From positions 1 through 43,614 of the forward strand of contig JAFAYV010000026.1 in assembly GCA_019240115.1 (NCBI GenBank): a DNA stretch of 43,614 nt, in the 5' to 3' direction. The notes below the pieces were generated by a model. That model worked only from the letters and a program-made list of their open reading frames with translations. It made no database searches and was not told the DNA's origin. Each line of letters starts with the position of its first letter. Position 1 is the first letter of the stretch. Origin of the DNA: Solirubrobacterales bacterium (GTDB taxonomy: Bacteria > Actinomycetota > Thermoleophilia > Solirubrobacterales > Solirubrobacteraceae). The position numbers and the translations under genes were made by a program. Of the stretch, positions 23,836 through 38,861 are shown one piece after another.

Positions 23836-23928
23836 GGCGCGCCGCGAAGGCGTAGGATCCCGGTCCCGCAGAGCGCTCGCGGCCGGAGCTTCCCACTGGC
23901 TCGCGCGTTACAGTGGCCAGGGTATCCA

Positions 23929-25671
23929 GTGGAAGCCTCCGCACTCCCAGCATCCGTCGGACTGGCGCGGCCGCGAATCGGAATCGGTCTTCCGCTGTTG
24001 CGATTGCGGTCCGACGAGCAGCTGGTGTCGGCCTTCCGCGCGGGCAGCGAGGACGCCTTCCGGGTCATTCACGACCGTTACCGGCAGCGGCTGTACGCCT
24101 ACACCCGCCAGATGCTCGCCGGCTCGAGCGCGGACGCTGAGGACGCGGTGCAGGAGATCTTCGTCCGCGCCTACGCGGGCCTGCGCAGCGACGATCGCGA
24201 CCTCGCACTGCGCGCCTGGCTGTATCGCGTCGCCCACAACCGCTGCGTCGACGAGCGCCGACGGCCGCACCCGGCGGTCACCGAGGCCACCGAGGACCTC
24301 CCGGCGTCGGCGGGCGATCCCGTCGCGCGCGTCGAGCAGCGCGACGCGCTGCGCCGCCTGATCGCCGACGTGCAGCGCCTGCCCGAGCAGCAGCGCTCGG
24401 CGCTGCTGATGCGCGAGCTCGGCGGGATGCCCTACGTCAACGTCTCCGAGGCGCTCGGCGTGTCGGTCGCCGCCGTCAAGTCGCTGCTCGTCCGGGCCCG
24501 CGTCGGCCTCGCCCAGGCCGGCGAGGCGCGCGACACCGCCTGCGCCAGCATCCGCGAGGACCTCATCGTCGCCCACGACCGCGGCGTGCGCACGAGCGGT
24601 CTCGCGCGCCGGCACATGCGCGACTGCTCTCACTGCCGCCAGTTCCGCTCCGAGGTGCGCGGCGTCAGCCGGCGCTTTGCCGTGCTCGTACCGACCCTCG
24701 GCCCGCTCGGGCTCCTCGCCAAGCTGTTCGGGGTCGGGGGCGCCTCGAGCGGCGCCGCGGCGGGCACCGGTGCGGTCGCCGGCTCGAGCGCGGTCGCGGG
24801 CTCGAGCGCGGTCGCGGGCTCGGGAGCGGTCGCGGGCTCGGGAGCGGCTGCCGGGGGCGCGGGCACCGGCGCGGCCGCCGTCACGGGCGCGGCCGCCGCC
24901 ACCACCGGTCACGTCGTCACCCTCCTGGCGGCGGCCGTCGTCACCGCCGGCGGAGCGATCGAGCTCCAGCACATGACCCCGCCCGCCCATCACGTCCGCC
25001 ACCACCGGATCGTGCACGCTGCTTCGGCCCCCGCCCCCGCCTCGAGCGCCGCCGCCGTCGGATCGGCGTCCGCTGCCGCGGCGACGAGCCCGACGGCCCC
25101 CGCGGCGTCTCCCGCCGCGGCGGCGTCCGCGAGCTCGATCGCCGTCTCGGCCGCCGGTGTCATCCGGCCCGGCTCGACGCCGGTCGCGCCCGCGCGTCGC
25201 GCGTCGTCACCGACGGTGCAGCCGCCCGAGTCGCTGCCCGAGCTTCTCGATCCCGACAACCTCGGCCACACCCCCGCCGTCCCGACCAAGCCGGCCGGGA
25301 CCGAGCCGACGAGCGGACGGCCGTCCGCCGGCACGCCGACGACCCCGGTCCCGCCGACCGGCACCGACCCCACGAGCGGCGTGCCGACCATGCCCGGGGT
25401 GCCCGGCTCCCCGACGTCGCCGGCGGGCACCTCGAGCCCGACGCCGACCTCCGGCGCGACCGCGGGTTCGACGAGCCCCACCCCGGTCGCGAGCTCGCCG
25501 ACCTCCTCGGGCTCGACCTCGAGCACTCCCACCGGCACCGTCAGCACGCAGTCGTCGAGTCCCGGCTCGGTGAGCTCGGGTGGGATGTCGATCGTCAGCG
25601 AATCCCCGTCGCGGTCGACGGCCTCGAGCTGGCACGCGGCAGTGCGCCGGTCGGGGCACTCGGGCCGCTAG
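23929..25671 (+). CDS. ECF sigma factor fused to zinc-finger, membrane helix and Ser/Thr/Pro tail
   Basis: 580 aa against about 180-200 for a simple ECF sigma. Region 2 spans about 30-105 (DAEDAVQEIFVRAYAGLR, LRAWLYRVAHNRCVDERR) and region 4 about 140-195 (LPEQQRSALLMRELGGMPYV, ALGVSVAAVKSLLVRAR). Then follow an anti-sigma-like zinc site, RRHMRDCSHCRQF (H229, C233, C236), four AVAGS(S/G) repeats, one membrane helix at about 327-346 (HVVTLLAAAVVTAGG) and about 230 residues of Ser/Thr/Pro-rich tail that should lie outside the cell. The inference is a membrane-tethered sigma with its own anti-sigma. GTG 23929 is the annotated start; it could lie slightly downstream. Confidence 0.87.
   Translation: MEASALPASVGLARPRIGIGLPLLRLRSDEQLVSAFRAGSEDAFRVIHDRYRQRLYAYTRQMLAGSSADAEDAVQEIFVRAYAGLRSDDRDLALRAWLYRVAHNRCVDERRRPHPAVTEATEDLPASAGDPVARVEQRDALRRLIADVQRLPEQQRSALLMRELGGMPYVNVSEALGVSVAAVKSLLVRARVGLAQAGEARDTACASIREDLIVAHDRGVRTSGLARRHMRDCSHCRQFRSEVRGVSRRFAVLVPTLGPLGLLAKLFGVGGASSGAAAGTGAVAGSSAVAGSSAVAGSGAVAGSGAAAGGAGTGAAAVTGAAAATTGHVVTLLAAAVVTAGGAIELQHMTPPAHHVRHHRIVHAASAPAPASSAAAVGSASAAAATSPTAPAASPAAAASASSIAVSAAGVIRPGSTPVAPARRASSPTVQPPESLPELLDPDNLGHTPAVPTKPAGTEPTSGRPSAGTPTTPVPPTGTDPTSGVPTMPGVPGSPTSPAGTSSPTPTSGATAGSTSPTPVASSPTSSGSTSSTPTGTVSTQSSSPGSVSSGGMSIVSESPSRSTASSWHAAVRRSGHSGR
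24772..24843. repeat. 18-bp coding repeat, 4 units (AVAGSS/AVAGSG)
   Basis: Four 18-bp units of the type gcggtcgcgggctcgagc in frame within the sigma-factor gene, between the zinc-finger part and the membrane helix. The product is a flexible small-residue linker. Confidence 0.85.
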
Positions 25672-27815: not shown

Positions 27816-29036
27816 TCAACCGATGAGCGAGAGCGCGTAGGAGAGCCAGAATTGGCCGGCGGACGGGCCGCCGTTGCAGGTGCCGTCGCTCTCGCCGGGG
27901 GTCTTGATCCACAGCTCGGCATCGATCAACGGGTTACCGGTGGCGGTGCGCGGGGTCGGTCCCAGCCGGGCGCCCGCGGGATTGCACCATTGACCGGCGG
28001 CGACGCTGCCTCCGTCCCGCGAGGTGTCGATCACGAAGTGCCGGTTGCCGACCAGCTGCGAGATGCTCGCGCCGTAGGCCGCCGCCTGCGCCGACGGATA
28101 GAAGTTCGCCACGTTCACCGCGAAGCCGGCGCGGCTGGCGCCCAGCACCTGCGCCAGCCCCGCCGCCTCACTCGTCGGCGATTGCCAGCCCGGATTGCCC
28201 GCATCGACGTACACCGAGGCGCTCGGGTCGCTCGTCAGATGCGTCACCGCATAGTTGAGCAACTCGATGTAGGCCTGCTGCTCAGCGCTCGTCAGGCACG
28301 ACATCTCCGAGAGCGCGTCGGGCTCGACGACGATCAGCGCCCGCTGCTGACCGAGCGCGGCGACGACGCCGTCGATGAACGTCTCGTAGGCGGCCGGGCT
28401 CGCGGCACCCCCCGAGGAGTACTGCCCGCAGTCGCGCCAGGGCAGGTCGTAGACGACGAAGATCGGCACCTTGCCGGCGGCGGCCGCCGCGGCGGTCACC
28501 GTGGCCGCCGTCGAAGGGCTCGAGTCGTCAGTCAGCCACGTGGCCTCCGGCTGGGCGGCAATCGTCTGCAGCTGCGCCGCCGCGGCCGCGTCGCCGCTCG
28601 CCTGCAGCGAGCGGGCCTCGGTGGCCGCCGAGTCGTTCGGGTTGACGTAGAACTGCGACCCCGTCAGATCGATGCCGCTTGCCGACGTCGGCGTGGCCGG
28701 CCCGGGCGACGGGCTCCTCGGAGTGCCGGTCGGCGGACGCTGGTGGGTCGTGGCGTGATGGCGGCGGTGCCGGTGGACGCTCGTGCCGCGGAGGGTGGTC
28801 CGCCTCACGCACCGGGCGCGACGCCGGCGGTGCGCGCGGTCCGCCCGGCAGGCGCGAACGCGGTGGCTACCGCGCAGCTGGACGGCGCGCTGAACGTGAG
28901 GAGCGCGATGGTCGGCCGCGGTCGGGCTCGAGCCGGCCTGAGCGAGCGCGGGCGCCACGGTGACGCAGCACACGCCGAGCACCGCGGCCCACCGGCGCGC
29001 GAGCCGCCGCCACCCTGTGCCCGAGGCGGGAAGCAC
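27816..29036 (-). CDS. Secreted glycoside hydrolase family 6 (cellulase-type)
   Basis: 406 aa. Signal peptide (about 1-33, core AVLGVCCVTVAPALAQA), then an extremely Arg/His-rich segment (about 40-95) and a Pro/Thr/Ser linker. The GH6 catalytic domain spans about 115-406: VVYDLPWRDCGQYSSGGA holds the general acid Asp, LIVVEPDALSEMSC the second acidic motif, and ELWIKTPGESDGTC the conserved substrate-binding end. GH6 enzymes cut cellulose beta-1,4 bonds by inversion (endoglucanase or cellobiohydrolase). No carbohydrate-binding module is seen. The very basic N-terminal linker is unusual and might bind cell-wall polymers. Confidence 0.88.
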   Translation of the reverse strand: MLPASGTGWRRLARRWAAVLGVCCVTVAPALAQAGSSPTAADHRAPHVQRAVQLRGSHRVRACRADRAHRRRRARCVRRTTLRGTSVHRHRRHHATTHQRPPTGTPRSPSPGPATPTSASGIDLTGSQFYVNPNDSAATEARSLQASGDAAAAAQLQTIAAQPEATWLTDDSSPSTAATVTAAAAAAGKVPIFVVYDLPWRDCGQYSSGGAASPAAYETFIDGVVAALGQQRALIVVEPDALSEMSCLTSAEQQAYIELLNYAVTHLTSDPSASVYVDAGNPGWQSPTSEAAGLAQVLGASRAGFAVNVANFYPSAQAAAYGASISQLVGNRHFVIDTSRDGGSVAAGQWCNPAGARLGPTPRTATGNPLIDAELWIKTPGESDGTCNGGPSAGQFWLSYALSLIG

Positions 29037-34660: not shown

Positions 34661-35899
34661 TCATCCGCCGAGGTGCGGCGCGGCGGGAAGGCGGACCGTG
34701 ACGCACAGCCCGCCGGCGGCCCGGGGGGTGAGGGTGAGCGCGCCGTCGTGTGCTTGGGCGATGCTGTCCACGATCGCCAGGCCGAGGCCGACCCCCGCGT
34801 GGTCGGCGCGTATCCGCTGGGTGCCTCGCTGAAACGGCTCGGCGAGCGTGGAAACGAGCTGCGGGGGGAGCTGCTCGCCGGTGTTCTTGACGGTGAGCTC
34901 AACGGTCTCGGGGTGAGAGCTGGTGGTGACCCATACGGTGCCGTGTCCAGGGAGGTTGTGGACGATGGCGTTGTGCACGAGGTTCGTCGTCATCTGCAGC
35001 AGGAGCGGGTGTGAGCCGATGGTCGCGGTCGGGTCGCCGGAGGTCTCGATGCTGACGTCGCGTTTCTCTGCGAGCGGGATGAGGGTTTCCGTGGCTTCAT
35101 CGGCGATGAGGGAGAGGTCGACGCGTTCTCGGGCGAAGGACCGTTGGTCGGCGCGGCTGAGCAGGAGCAGTGCTTCGGTGAGGTCGATCGCGCGGGTGTT
35201 GACCTCGTTGAGGCGGTCGACGAGCTCGCCGTTGTCGCGGTTCGGATCTTGGCGGGCCACGTCGAGGAGGGTCTTGGTGAGCGCCAGCGGGGTGCGCAGC
35301 TCGTGGGAGGCGTTCGCTGCGAATCTCTGCTGTTCGGCGACGTGTGCCTCGAGCCGCGCAAGGAGGCCGTCGACGGTGTCGGCGAGATCCGTCAGCTCGT
35401 CGCGAGGCCCGGAGAGCGCGAGGCGCTCGTTGAGGTTGCGCTCGGAGATCTGCCGCGTGGTCGCCGTGATCGCGCGCAGCGGGCGCAGGACCCGCCCGGC
35501 GACCAGCCAGCCGAGCGCGATCGAGATCGCGGTCATGATCGCCAGCGCGATCCCGGACTGGATGAGCCCTTCGTGGAGACCGTGGGTGTTGCGTGCGACG
35601 GCCGCCGCGTACACGTGGCGCGCCTGGCGGATGGCGGCCGGGTTCGGCATAGCACCGTTGTGGGCGCCCGGCCTGGTCGACCGATGTGGATTCCGCAGGA
35701 CGATCAGGTCGACCCCGGTGTTGCTCCGGAAGACGAGGTAGGTAGTCGCGAGCAGCGCCACTCCCGAGACGAGGAACAGGCCGCTGTAGAGCAGCGTCAG
35801 GCGCAGACGCACGGTCCGCGAGGGCAGGTGTAGCAGCCGACGTGGCACGAGCCCGGCGACTGGGAAGCGGGGCATCCTGAGGATGGGCGCTCTATCCAC
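34661..35899 (-). CDS. Sensor histidine kinase (OmpR-type partner)
   Basis: 412 aa from GTG 35899 (ATG 35875 is an alternative). Two membrane helices (about 33-56 and 112-136) flank an extracytoplasmic loop of some 55 residues; HAMP follows (RVLRPLRAITATTRQISERN). The dimerisation box has the phospho-His: FAANASHELRTPLALTKTLL. ATPase motifs are N box LVHNAIVHNLPGHG, G1/G2 HAGVGLGLAIVDS. It overlaps the response regulator gene by 8 nt. The short sensor loop fits kinases that detect envelope stress or peptide antibiotics next to MacB-type exporters. Confidence 0.92.
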   Translation of the reverse strand: MDRAPILRMPRFPVAGLVPRRLLHLPSRTVRLRLTLLYSGLFLVSGVALLATTYLVFRSNTGVDLIVLRNPHRSTRPGAHNGAMPNPAAIRQARHVYAAAVARNTHGLHEGLIQSGIALAIMTAISIALGWLVAGRVLRPLRAITATTRQISERNLNERLALSGPRDELTDLADTVDGLLARLEAHVAEQQRFAANASHELRTPLALTKTLLDVARQDPNRDNGELVDRLNEVNTRAIDLTEALLLLSRADQRSFARERVDLSLIADEATETLIPLAEKRDVSIETSGDPTATIGSHPLLLQMTTNLVHNAIVHNLPGHGTVWVTTSSHPETVELTVKNTGEQLPPQLVSTLAEPFQRGTQRIRADHAGVGLGLAIVDSIAQAHDGALTLTPRAAGGLCVTVRLPAAPHLGG

Positions 35900-36614
35900 G
35901 GTCCCCCCTGTCGGGCTCGATGTCTGGTTGGGTGTCGATGCGGTATCCGGCGCCGGGCACGGTGGCGATGATCGAGGGTTCGCCGAGGCGTTTGCGCAGT
36001 GCCGAGACGATGATGCGCACAGCGTTGGTGAACGGGTCGGCGTTCTCATCCCACGCGCGTCTCAGCAGCTCTTCGGCGCTGACGACTCCGCCTTCGGCGG
36101 CGACGAGGACTTCAAGGACGGCGAACTGCTTCCGGGTGAGTGCGACGTAGCGGCCCTCGCGGTGGACCTCGCGACGGAACGGATCCAAACGGAGACCGGC
36201 GATCTCGTGCACGGGCGGCCGACTGTGGGCGCGGCGGCGGTCGAGCGCTCGGAGACGCAACACGAGCTCTTGGAGCTCGAACGGCTTGGTGAGGTAGTCG
36301 TCGGCGCCGAGCCCGAACCCGGTGGCCTTGTCGTCGAGCCGGTCGGCTGCGGTCAGCATCAGGATCGGCATGCCGCTGCCGCAGGAAACGATGCGTTTGG
36401 CGAGCTCGTCGCCCGACGGGCCGGGGATGTCGCGATCGAGGACGGCGATGTCGTAGGCGTTGACGCTCAGCAGCTCCAGCGCGGCGTCGCCGTCACCGGC
36501 GATGTCGGCCGCGATCGCCTCGAGGCGCAAACCGTCCCGGACCGCTTCGGCCATCAAGGGCTCGTCCTCGACGATCAACACGCGCATGCGCTCGGATGCT
36601 GCCAGCTGGGACAT
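35892..36614 (-). CDS. OmpR/PhoB-type response regulator
   Basis: 240 aa from ATG 36614 (MSQLAASER); ATG 36587 gives the more typical start MRVLIVEDEPLMAEAV. Receiver domain with acidic pocket VEDE, phospho-acceptor Asp in DIAVLDRDIPGPSG, and Lys in DDYLTKPFELQEL. The winged-helix DNA-binding domain has VALTRKQFAVLEVLVAAEGG and FTNAVRIIVSALRKRLG, ending in TVPGAGYRI. Upstream hexamer repeats with an 11-bp period may be its own binding site. Divergent from the ABC operon at 37168, the likely target. Confidence 0.92.
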   Translation of the reverse strand: MSQLAASERMRVLIVEDEPLMAEAVRDGLRLEAIAADIAGDGDAALELLSVNAYDIAVLDRDIPGPSGDELAKRIVSCGSGMPILMLTAADRLDDKATGFGLGADDYLTKPFELQELVLRLRALDRRRAHSRPPVHEIAGLRLDPFRREVHREGRYVALTRKQFAVLEVLVAAEGGVVSAEELLRRAWDENADPFTNAVRIIVSALRKRLGEPSIIATVPGAGYRIDTQPDIEPDRGDRG

Positions 36615-37167: not shown

Positions 37168-37704
37168 ATGAGTGAAAGACGGCCGCTCGCCGCGCTTGTC
37201 CTGGTCGCCCTGGTCGCCCTGGTCGCCCTGATCAGCGGGTGCGGTTCGAGCGCACCCGCCGCAACCGGCAGCGGTGGCAGCGGCGAAACCGTCGCCAATG
37301 CCCAGAAGGCGGTGAAGTTCGCCGAGTGCATGCGTAAGAACGGGGTCAGCCAATTCCCCGACCCGAACGCGTCGGGCAAGCTCACCATCGATGCGGTAGC
37401 GAACGGCTCGGGGCTCAACACGAGCACCCCGGCGTTCACACAGGCCAGCAGCGAGTGCAAGGCCCTGGAGCCAGCGGGGTTCACGGGCAGCAAGCGCAGC
37501 CCCCAGCAGCAGCAGGCGGCCCTCAGGTTCGCGCAGTGCATCCGCGCCAACGGCGTGCCGGACTTCCCTGACCCGCTCCCAAACAGCCCCCTCCTCGACA
37601 CGAATCGAATCCCATCCGCCGCGCAACCCGGGGGGATGAGCAGTCTCCACGCCGCGATGCAGAAGTGTCGCGATGTGGCAGCCGCTGCGGGGGTGACGCG
37701 GTGA
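37168..37704 (+). CDS. Lipoprotein with duplicated FAxCMRxNGVxxFPDP motif
   Basis: 178 aa. Signal peptide with lipobox ISGC (Cys near residue 25), so a lipid-anchored extracytoplasmic protein. Two copies of one unit: KFAECMRKNGVSQFPDP (about 50-66) and RFAQCIRANGVPDFPDP (about 116-132), each followed later by another Cys, so two disulfides are possible. Such proteins recur beside MacB-type exporters in actinobacteria, without a settled function. A CAGGAGA ribosome site precedes the ATG; it opens an operon with overlapping stops and starts. Confidence 0.82.
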   Translation: MSERRPLAALVLVALVALVALISGCGSSAPAATGSGGSGETVANAQKAVKFAECMRKNGVSQFPDPNASGKLTIDAVANGSGLNTSTPAFTQASSECKALEPAGFTGSKRSPQQQQAALRFAQCIRANGVPDFPDPLPNSPLLDTNRIPSAAQPGGMSSLHAAMQKCRDVAAAAGVTR

Positions 37705-38861
37705 AGCGGAAGAGGTGGGTGCTGGCTACAACGGCCGTCGTGGTTGCCCTCGCCGCCGCCGGCGGCGTGCTCGTCACCTCCGGCGCGCGGCAACAGGCCC
37801 TGTCGGCGCAGCGTTCGCCCTTGAACAGCGCGAACGTAGAGAAGAGGACGCTCTCGGCGATGGTCTCGGAGGCTGGGATCCTGACCTATCAGGCGCAGTC
37901 GGACGGCTCCCCGTATTCCGTGATAAACCAGGCGCGGGGGTCGTACACCGACCTGCCCGCGCGCGGGCAGGTGATCTCTCAGGGTCGGGTGCTCTACCGC
38001 GTGAACGACAGCCCGGTGGTTTTGCTGCGCGGCTCGACACCGGCCTATCGGACCTTGTCGGCCGGGGCGACGGGCCCCGACGTGGCCGAGCTCAACGCGG
38101 ATCTGGTCGCGCTCGGCTACGCCACCCGGGCTCAGCTCAGCCCAACGTCCGCGTCCTTCGGGTCGGCCACCACCACGGCTGTGGAGAAGCTCCAGGCCGC
38201 CCTGGGGGTGACCCAGACCGGCACGGTGGCTCTTGGTCAGGCGGTGTTCGAACCCATCGCCGTGCGGGTGACGACTGTGTTAGCCCAGCCGGGGGGCCGG
38301 ACGCAGCCCGGCGAGACGGTGATGCAGGCCACCTCGACCACGCGCCAGGTGCAGCTGGCGTTGGACGCCTCGCAACAGACCGAAGTCGCGGTCGGGGACA
38401 AGGTGAGCATCACCCTGCCCAACAACCAGACCGCCCCGGGTGTCGTCTCCTCGGTGGGGACGGTCGCGACCTGCCCTTCGAGCTCCGGGTCCGGCGGGTC
38501 GGGGTCCAGCTCCGCTGCGCCGGGAACTGACACGTGCTCCTCAGGCAGCTCGGGGAGCGACGCCACCCCGACCATCACCGTGGGCGTCACTCCATCTGAC
38601 CCGGCCGCCACAGGCAGGTGGGATCAGGCGCCGGTGCAGGTCGGCATCACGACCGCACGGGTGCCCGACGCGCTGGTCGTGCCCGTGACCGCGCTGCTGG
38701 CCCAATCCGGCGGCGGATACGCCGTCGAGGTCGTTGGCGCAGCGGCGAGGAACCATCTCGTGCCGGTCTCGCTCGGACTGTTCGACGACGCCGACGGGCT
38801 GGTGCAGGTCACCGGGTCGGGGCTGGCCGCCGGTCAGACGGTGGTGGTCGCATCGACATGA
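37701..38861 (+). CDS. Periplasmic adaptor (HlyD/MacA-like) with peptidoglycan-binding domain
   Basis: 386 aa from a GTG overlapping the lipoprotein stop. N-terminal membrane anchor (VLATTAVVVALAAAGGVLV), then the adaptor start ANVEKRTLSAMVSEAGIL. In place of a coiled-coil hairpin is a peptidoglycan-binding domain, GATGPDVAELNADLVALGYA and TTTAVEKLQAALGVTQTGTV. The beta-barrel parts follow (VGDKVSITLPNNQTAPGVVS; VPDALVVPVTALLAQSGGGY). A Ser/Gly-rich insertion near 255-295 contains two Cys. It would join the exporter to the wall. Confidence 0.87.
   Translation: MKRKRWVLATTAVVVALAAAGGVLVTSGARQQALSAQRSPLNSANVEKRTLSAMVSEAGILTYQAQSDGSPYSVINQARGSYTDLPARGQVISQGRVLYRVNDSPVVLLRGSTPAYRTLSAGATGPDVAELNADLVALGYATRAQLSPTSASFGSATTTAVEKLQAALGVTQTGTVALGQAVFEPIAVRVTTVLAQPGGRTQPGETVMQATSTTRQVQLALDASQQTEVAVGDKVSITLPNNQTAPGVVSSVGTVATCPSSSGSGGSGSSSAAPGTDTCSSGSSGSDATPTITVGVTPSDPAATGRWDQAPVQVGITTARVPDALVVPVTALLAQSGGGYAVEVVGAAARNHLVPVSLGLFDDADGLVQVTGSGLAAGQTVVVAST

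What the first reader, a model, noticed from the sequence alone, without database searches (positions are those of the whole stretch)
23929..25671. One-chain sigma factor with its own zinc anti-sigma, membrane helix and outside tail
ECF regions 2 and 4, an H-x3-C-x2-C zinc site, a slippage-prone AVAGS linker, a single membrane helix and a 230-residue Ser/Thr/Pro tail lie in one frame. This would be a membrane-held sigma able to sense the wall directly and be released by proteolysis. No separate anti-sigma gene is adjacent.
Basis: partly seen in the sequence, partly recalled or inferred. Interest (0 to 1): 0.55.

Follow-up and report, generated by a model that had tools for sequence, protein, structure and literature searches.

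The report
Sigma factor fused to its anti-sigma
An actinobacterium carries a gene-switching protein joined in one chain to its own probable inhibitor and a possible membrane tether; the design is already known elsewhere, but comparing genomes suggests what this one switches on: itself and an enzyme that probably starts building a surface polysaccharide.

Summary
Window 23929-25671 (+) is one 580-codon frame: ECF sigma regions 2 and 4, a C-x23-H-x3-C-x2-C anti-sigma-type domain, a Gly/Ala/Ser linker, one weakly hydrophobic segment and a 236-residue Ser/Thr/Pro/Ala tail. Of 16 same-genus loci (window included) 13 have the whole fused frame; three run off contig ends. No separate anti-sigma gene was found beside it. 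The AVAGS repeat is private to this genome. The membrane helix is plausible but weak; outside tail and proteolytic release are inferred. The design is known (ECF48, ECF52, ECF53); this variant lacks ECF52's carbohydrate-binding module.

New here: an ECF-type promoter (GGAACTT-N14-CGTTA) precedes this gene and most orthologs, and recurs before one distant gene, a PF02397 sugar transferase. In all 17 genus genomes with both genes the transferase has a site scoring at least 9/12 (15 at least 10); the one genome with the transferase but no ortholog found has no such site. The contrast recurs, more weakly, in other genera. Best reading: an autoregulated, probably membrane-tethered one-chain sigma controlling polysaccharide synthesis.

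The parts
23885..23891 (+). -35-like element GGAGCTT of an ECF-type promoter
   Evidence: 14 nt upstream of CGTTA; a -35 of at least 5/7 at exactly 14 nt in 11 of 16 same-genus loci
23906..23910 (+). -10-like element CGTTA, 23 nt before the start codon
   Evidence: CGTTA 21-26 nt before the start in 14 of 16 same-genus loci; also found by pattern search with one mismatch
23929..25671 (+). one-chain ECF sigma factor with fused zinc anti-sigma-type domain, weak membrane segment and Ser/Thr/Pro tail (580 aa, GTG start)
24073..24264 (+). sigma-70 region 2 (residues 49-112)
   Evidence: PF04542 2.5e-14
24370..24501 (+). sigma-70 region 4 (residues 148-191)
   Evidence: PF08281 1.7e-13
24511..24744 (+). 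zinc anti-sigma-type domain (residues 195-272), probable ligands C205, H229, C233, C236
   Evidence: motif in 31 of 31 proteins; AlphaFold2 helices 1-3, block pLDDT 92-94; zf-HC2 not matched by the window protein, 3 of 7 alignment members match weakly, best E 0.053
24745..24909 (+). Gly/Ala/Ser linker with AVAGS repeat (18-bp tandem array 24760-24847)
   Evidence: repeat not shared by orthologs
24910..24960 (+). putative membrane helix HVVTLLAAAVVTAGGAI (residues 328-344)
   Evidence: recognisable in the 13 complete same-genus frames; weak hydrophobicity; helix at low confidence
24961..25668 (+). Ser/Thr/Pro/Ala-rich low-complexity tail, predicted outside the membrane
   Evidence: composition; no Pfam domain; sequence not conserved, composition similar

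Best explanation
The protein is an ECF sigma factor carrying an anti-sigma domain of the zinc class-I type in the same chain, followed by a flexible linker, a single weak membrane anchor and a long disordered tail that most likely lies in the cell-wall space. At rest the anti-sigma domain clamps the sigma regions at the membrane. An unknown envelope signal removes the clamp, most likely by proteolysis near or in the membrane; the freed sigma part then transcribes its own gene and a gene for a PF02397 sugar transferase that probably starts a surface polysaccharide. Shown by computation: architecture, conservation, the shared promoter motif, and that the motif before the transferase goes with presence of this sigma. 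Inferred: that this sigma reads that promoter, zinc binding, membrane insertion, topology, proteolysis, signal, polysaccharide.
For: Domains and frame. Ligand pattern 31 of 31; three-helix domain. Own promoter in most orthologs; in 20 loci from other genera (20 of the 43 other-genus genomes with a match) 16 score at least 9/12. Own genome, one mismatch allowed: 3 sites (this gene, the transferase with no mismatch, one unrelated) against 1 for the reversed pattern. Exact motif in 28 genus genomes: 6 sites, 2 before this sigma's orthologs, 3 before orthologous transferases, 1 other; reversed 1. AACTT-N14-CGTTA: 29 sites (reversed 13): 5 sigma, 9 orthologous transferases, 1 other transferase, 14 other. 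Transferase upstream regions (460 nt): 17 of 17 genus genomes with the sigma score at least 9/12, 15 at least 10; dinucleotide shuffles reach 9 in 5.9%, 10 in 0.6%, 11 in 0 of 3600; the one genome without the sigma (G005) scores 8. Outside the genus 23 loci with versus 7 without the sigma: p 0.0003, genus medians 12 versus 4 p 0.005, not corrected for phylogeny; mean difference 2.2 at spacing 14 and at most 0.7 at the eight other spacings tried. L002-type paralogs have TGTC- or TGTT-like -10 elements. Transferase: PF02397 4.6e-61, with a PF01370 gene just upstream.
Against: Membrane helix weak. zf-HC2 cut-off not reached; the predicted domain found no anti-sigma in the PDB (inconclusive). 14 of 29 relaxed sites lie elsewhere and the reversed control had 13, so many sites are chance. 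A score of 9 is not rare: 14.9% of 818 genomic slices reach 9, 2.1% reach 10. Some high scores also appear at spacing 8 (one 11, four 10) and 20 (one 11, one 10); one search shows they reuse the same -35. Outside the genus 8 of 23 regions with the sigma score 8 or less. G009 has the sigma but no transferase found. G005 is 83% complete, so its sigma could be missed. Most genus genomes are drafts. No expression data.
Confidence: 0.6

Rival explanations
1. Cytosolic one-chain sigma: the Ala-rich segment does not cross the membrane; the zinc domain senses redox or metal inside the cell and the tail is a disordered spacer.
For: Weak hydrophobicity (0.9-3.8 kcal/mol for the best window on a recalled scale); basic and His-rich residues just after the segment (HHVRHHR); no folded outside domain in 24 proteins scanned; PMC7406223 reports zinc motifs over-represented in soluble class-I anti-sigmas (passages).
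Against: By eye the segment is the best-conserved stretch outside the sigma and zinc domains, and it is the most hydrophobic after the zinc site in all 14 window-type proteins measured; Ser/Thr/Pro-rich tails with few charges are common in wall-exposed regions (general knowledge); the predicted target is envelope-related.
Confidence: 0.22
2. Hairpin: residues about 250-268 and 328-344 both enter the membrane, so the tail is inside.
For: A second apolar stretch follows the zinc site (FAVLVPTLGPLGLLAKLFG); the charge pattern (basic before, neutral linker, basic/His after) would suit it; in 3 of 13 outgroup proteins (L033-L035) that stretch scores slightly better than the putative helix, and in L031 and L037 nearly as well.
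Against: In window-type proteins that stretch scores 5.0-6.7, always worse than the putative helix, and carries Pro and, in 11 of 16 by my count, a Lys or Arg. It sits where helix 4 of class-I anti-sigma domains, which binds sigma region 2, would be (PMC7406223 passages; the placing is my inference).
Confidence: 0.08
3. The transferase promoter is read by another sigma, and its correlation with this gene is shared ancestry.
For: The own genome has at least three other ECFs of this plan and other genomes list several further ECF matches each; presence in the genus may follow one clade; no phylogenetic correction was made.
Against: Same motif and spacing in this sigma's own promoter; L002-type promoters differ at -10; promoters of the remaining paralogs were not examined. 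G005 has the transferase without the site; the contrast repeats in other genera.
Confidence: 0.2

Closest known systems
ECF52 group, SCO4117 of Streptomyces coelicolor
   Same: ECF sigma, zinc finger, membrane region and long low-complexity C-terminal extension in one chain, in Actinobacteria; motif in one of its own promoters suggesting autoregulation (PMC5826349, abstract and passages seen)
   Different: No carbohydrate-binding module found in the tail; different motif (SCO4117: CSGYN-17 bp-SRHA); predicted target here is one sugar transferase, there 29 genes
ECF48 and ECF53 groups
   Same: C-terminal zinc domain plus one to two membrane helices, extensions up to 400 residues, expected to be freed by proteolysis (PMC8999054, abstract and passages seen)
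   Different: No group profiles at hand; membership untested
IutY of Pseudomonas putida (ECF243)
   Same: Sigma and membrane anti-sigma in one chain, released by regulated proteolysis (PMC8999054, passages seen)
   Different: Iron-siderophore signalling; the passages mention no zinc domain for it
Two-gene ECF/zinc anti-sigma pair in the same genome (C51; L008)
   Same: Short match of 19 columns around H-x3-C-x2-C to the separate anti-sigma (hhalign probability 70%)
   Different: There sigma and anti-sigma are separate overlapping genes

Membership tests
ECF sigma factors | sigma regions 2 and 4 without regions 1 and 3 | tested here: met
   PF04542, PF08281/PF04545 and no region 1 or 3 match at E 1 or better; TIGR02937 79.1 bits, cut-off 42.9
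Class-I zinc anti-sigma domain | H-x3-C-x2-C signature (with an upstream ligand) | tested here: met
   31 of 31 proteins, window included; signature as used in PMC7406223 (passages)
Class-I zinc anti-sigma domain | zf-HC2 profile over its cut-off (a marker, not the definition) | tested here: not met
   No match for the window protein; 3 of 7 members match weakly, best E 0.053
Class-I zinc anti-sigma domain | anti-sigma fold | tested here: inconclusive
   Helices 1-3 predicted well; few weak PDB matches, none an anti-sigma
ECF52 | carbohydrate-binding module after a proline-rich region | tested here: not met
   No Pfam match in the tail of the window protein or of 10 orthologs scanned of 15
ECF52 | membrane helix | tested here: inconclusive
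   Weak candidate helix
ECF48 / ECF53 | sequence-group profile of the sigma part | not testable with these tools
   No ECF-group profile library at hand
Membrane-tethered sigma released by proteolysis | cleavage that frees an active sigma part | not testable with these tools
   Only presence of M50 proteases shown

The most novel reading that the evidence does not exclude
In this order of actinobacteria, envelope signalling runs largely on an expanded set of parallel one-chain sensors (sigma, zinc clamp, membrane anchor and disordered wall tail in a single protein), each with its own promoter code; this member is a dedicated switch from a wall signal to initiation of a surface polysaccharide, with the disordered tail itself as the sensor.
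Probability: 0.3. Interest if true: 0.65.

Novelty: new variant of a known kind. Interest (0 to 1): 0.45.

Why it matters
Fused sigma/anti-sigma proteins are known mostly by architecture: by the review PMC8999054 (passages) only IutY's release by proteolysis had been characterised by experiment. A conserved promoter code with one specific predicted target makes this one directly testable and gives a handle on signal and topology, in a lineage where several proteins of this plan coexist in one genome.

Tried and rejected
Separate anti-sigma nearby: none in the scan of 20 loci (frames of 60-450 aa only). Frameshift or internal start for the tail: rejected, 13 of 16 complete single frames, 3 cut by contig ends. 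Slippage-prone AVAGS linker as a conserved device: rejected. Outside folded domains in relatives to settle topology: none in 24 proteins of this plan (window; L002-L004; 10 paralogs; 10 of 15 orthologs), apart from a below-cut-off collagen-like repeat in the linker of L036. Peptidoglycan-binding proteins as further targets: sites before L132 and L137 (orthologs in G022, G023) and L149, but only 2 of 6 genomes with an L132 homolog keep a site, so not claimed. Of the 14 other relaxed sites, downstream frames of 9 were scanned against Pfam together with the second transferase L138; the other 5 were not. Restriction of the gene to one genus: my first impression, corrected (15 of 51 genera; that search scored at most 12 candidates a genome and used E 1e-70, so misses are possible). 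Co-occurrence of sigma and transferase is informative only inside the genus (17 both, 1 sigma only, 1 transferase only, 9 neither); outside, the transferase was in 36 of 37 genomes chosen, so only the promoter site was compared, for the 30 genomes whose loci were given (23 with, 7 without the sigma). The whole-model PDB search gave mainly sigma factors (first 50 of 167 rows seen). The PDB sequence search with the zinc domain gave nothing significant. Literature: of the listings (15 of 424 papers shown; 12 of 69; 7 of 7; none found) none was, by title and start of abstract, about fused ECFs in Solirubrobacterales or Thermoleophilia; papers outside that library were not searched.

Full report
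Observation. The frame 23929-25671 (+) is real and continuous. Pfam finds sigma regions 2 and 4 and no other domain over its cut-off. After region 4 comes C205-x23-H229-x3-C233-x2-C236; the pattern is in 31 of 31 proteins checked, window included. Then come a Gly/Ala/Ser linker, an Ala-rich apolar segment (HVVTLLAAAVVTAGGAI here, HVATLLAAAVVTAGGAV in many orthologs, more different in L024) and a tail of about 236 residues that keeps its general composition but not its sequence. Third-position GC is 0.90-0.94 through all parts. Of 16 same-genus loci, window included, 13 have complete fused frames of 507-586 aa and 3 run off contig ends. In 201 genomes of the order, 55 (15 of 51 genera, all in the same family) have a close homolog at E 1e-70 or better, one copy each except G021 with two.

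A family of one-chain sigmas. The own genome has at least three other ECFs of this plan: L002, L003 (cut by a contig end before any membrane segment) and L004, the last two judged by eye. In a tree of 53 rows built on the sigma part and zinc domain the 18 window-type proteins form one clade (support 97/100), apart from a clade of 19 with L002 that includes the other families sampled (98/98); 16 of 50 inner branches are open and some long branches are unsure. So the window gene looks like one of several old paralogs, not a one-off fusion.

Anti-sigma domain. The zf-HC2 model does not reach its cut-off; 3 of 7 members match weakly. AlphaFold2 on the domain alone gives three helices with block pLDDT 92-94 and a fourth, low-confidence one; H229 lies in helix 2 and C233/C236 at the helix 2/3 junction, which fits the class-I description in PMC7406223 (passages). 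PDB fold searches did not confirm it. A short profile match to a separate anti-sigma of the same genome has probability 70% over 19 columns. I take it as a divergent zinc anti-sigma domain; this is an inference.

Membrane and tail. On a recalled per-residue insertion scale the best 19-residue window after the zinc site scores 3.3 here and 0.9-3.8 in 14 window-type proteins, against 5.0-6.6 for the next best stretch. It is the best candidate but weak. No tail scanned has a folded domain. Outside location and release by proteolysis follow only by analogy with SCO4117 and IutY (PMC5826349, PMC8999054; passages). M50-type proteases occur in the genome, as in all 14 control genomes.

Promoter and probable regulon. 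Upstream of the start lies GGAGCTT-N14-CGTTA (23885-23910). In 16 same-genus loci CGTTA lies 21-26 nt before the start in 14, and a -35 of at least 5/7 at exactly 14 nt in 11; L010, L013, L019, L021 and L022 are weaker, shifted or lack it. In 20 loci from other genera 16 score at least 9/12. In the own genome, with one mismatch, the motif has 3 sites (this gene, the transferase, one unrelated) against 1 reversed. The exact motif in 28 genus genomes gave 6 sites against 1 reversed: 2 before orthologs of this sigma, 3 before orthologous sugar transferases, 1 other. The relaxed motif gave 29 against 13: 5 sigma, 9 orthologous transferases, 1 other transferase, 14 other.

Test by natural loss. The transferase is found in 18 of 28 genus genomes and the sigma in 18 of 28: both 17, sigma only G009, transferase only G005, neither 9. 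Its upstream region scores 12 in three, 11 in six, 10 in six and 9 in two of the 17; G005 scores 8, a -35-like half with no -10; whether it lost or never had the site, and whether its 83% complete genome really lacks the sigma, is open. In 3600 shuffles 5.9% reached 9, 0.6% 10 and none 11; in 818 genomic slices 14.9%, 2.1% and 0.24%. Spacing 14 is the only one of 8-21 with high scores throughout; the few high scores at spacings 8 and 20 reuse the same -35. Outside the genus, within -100..+40, 23 loci from genomes with the sigma score 7-11 (15 at least 9) and 7 from genomes without score 6-8 (p 0.0003; genus medians p 0.005). The p-values ignore phylogeny. L002-type promoters have TGTC- or TGTT-like -10 elements.

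Target. In the own genome the transferase (L180 10391-11917, PF02397) follows an epimerase/dehydratase-family gene, and a polysaccharide deacetylase lies about 7 kb downstream; six frames I tried in between had no Pfam match. That the transferase starts an exopolysaccharide follows from its family, not from a test.

Conclusion. The architecture is a variant of the known fused ECF kind; it does not meet the ECF52 definition (no carbohydrate-binding module found), and ECF48/ECF53 membership could not be tested. The added value is a specific regulon prediction: itself and one sugar transferase.

Noticed in passing
L004 (G000:C19:644-2161 and beyond): A fused sigma of about 882 residues in the same genome whose tail contains many Gly-Gln-Thr-type repeats; role unknown.
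   Followed up: no
window 27816-29036 (-): Glycosyl hydrolase family 6 (cellulase-type) protein, PF01341 3.5e-62, a few genes from the sigma gene.
   Followed up: no
window 34661-36049 (-) and 37665-38861 (+): Histidine kinase (HAMP, HisKA, HATPase_c) and a protein with HlyD_3 and PG_binding_1 matches.
   Followed up: no
L132, L137, L149: Promoter-like sites before PG_binding_1 proteins in G022, G023 and G014; the L132 site is not kept in 4 of 6 genomes with a homolog.
   Followed up: partly
L154 (G005): The genus genome with the transferase but no sigma ortholog found has a relaxed site 70 nt before a different sigma factor with regions 2, 3 and 4.
   Followed up: no
G021:C187 and G021:C426 (also L042, L043): The only genome listed with two copies of the window-type sigma.
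   Followed up: no
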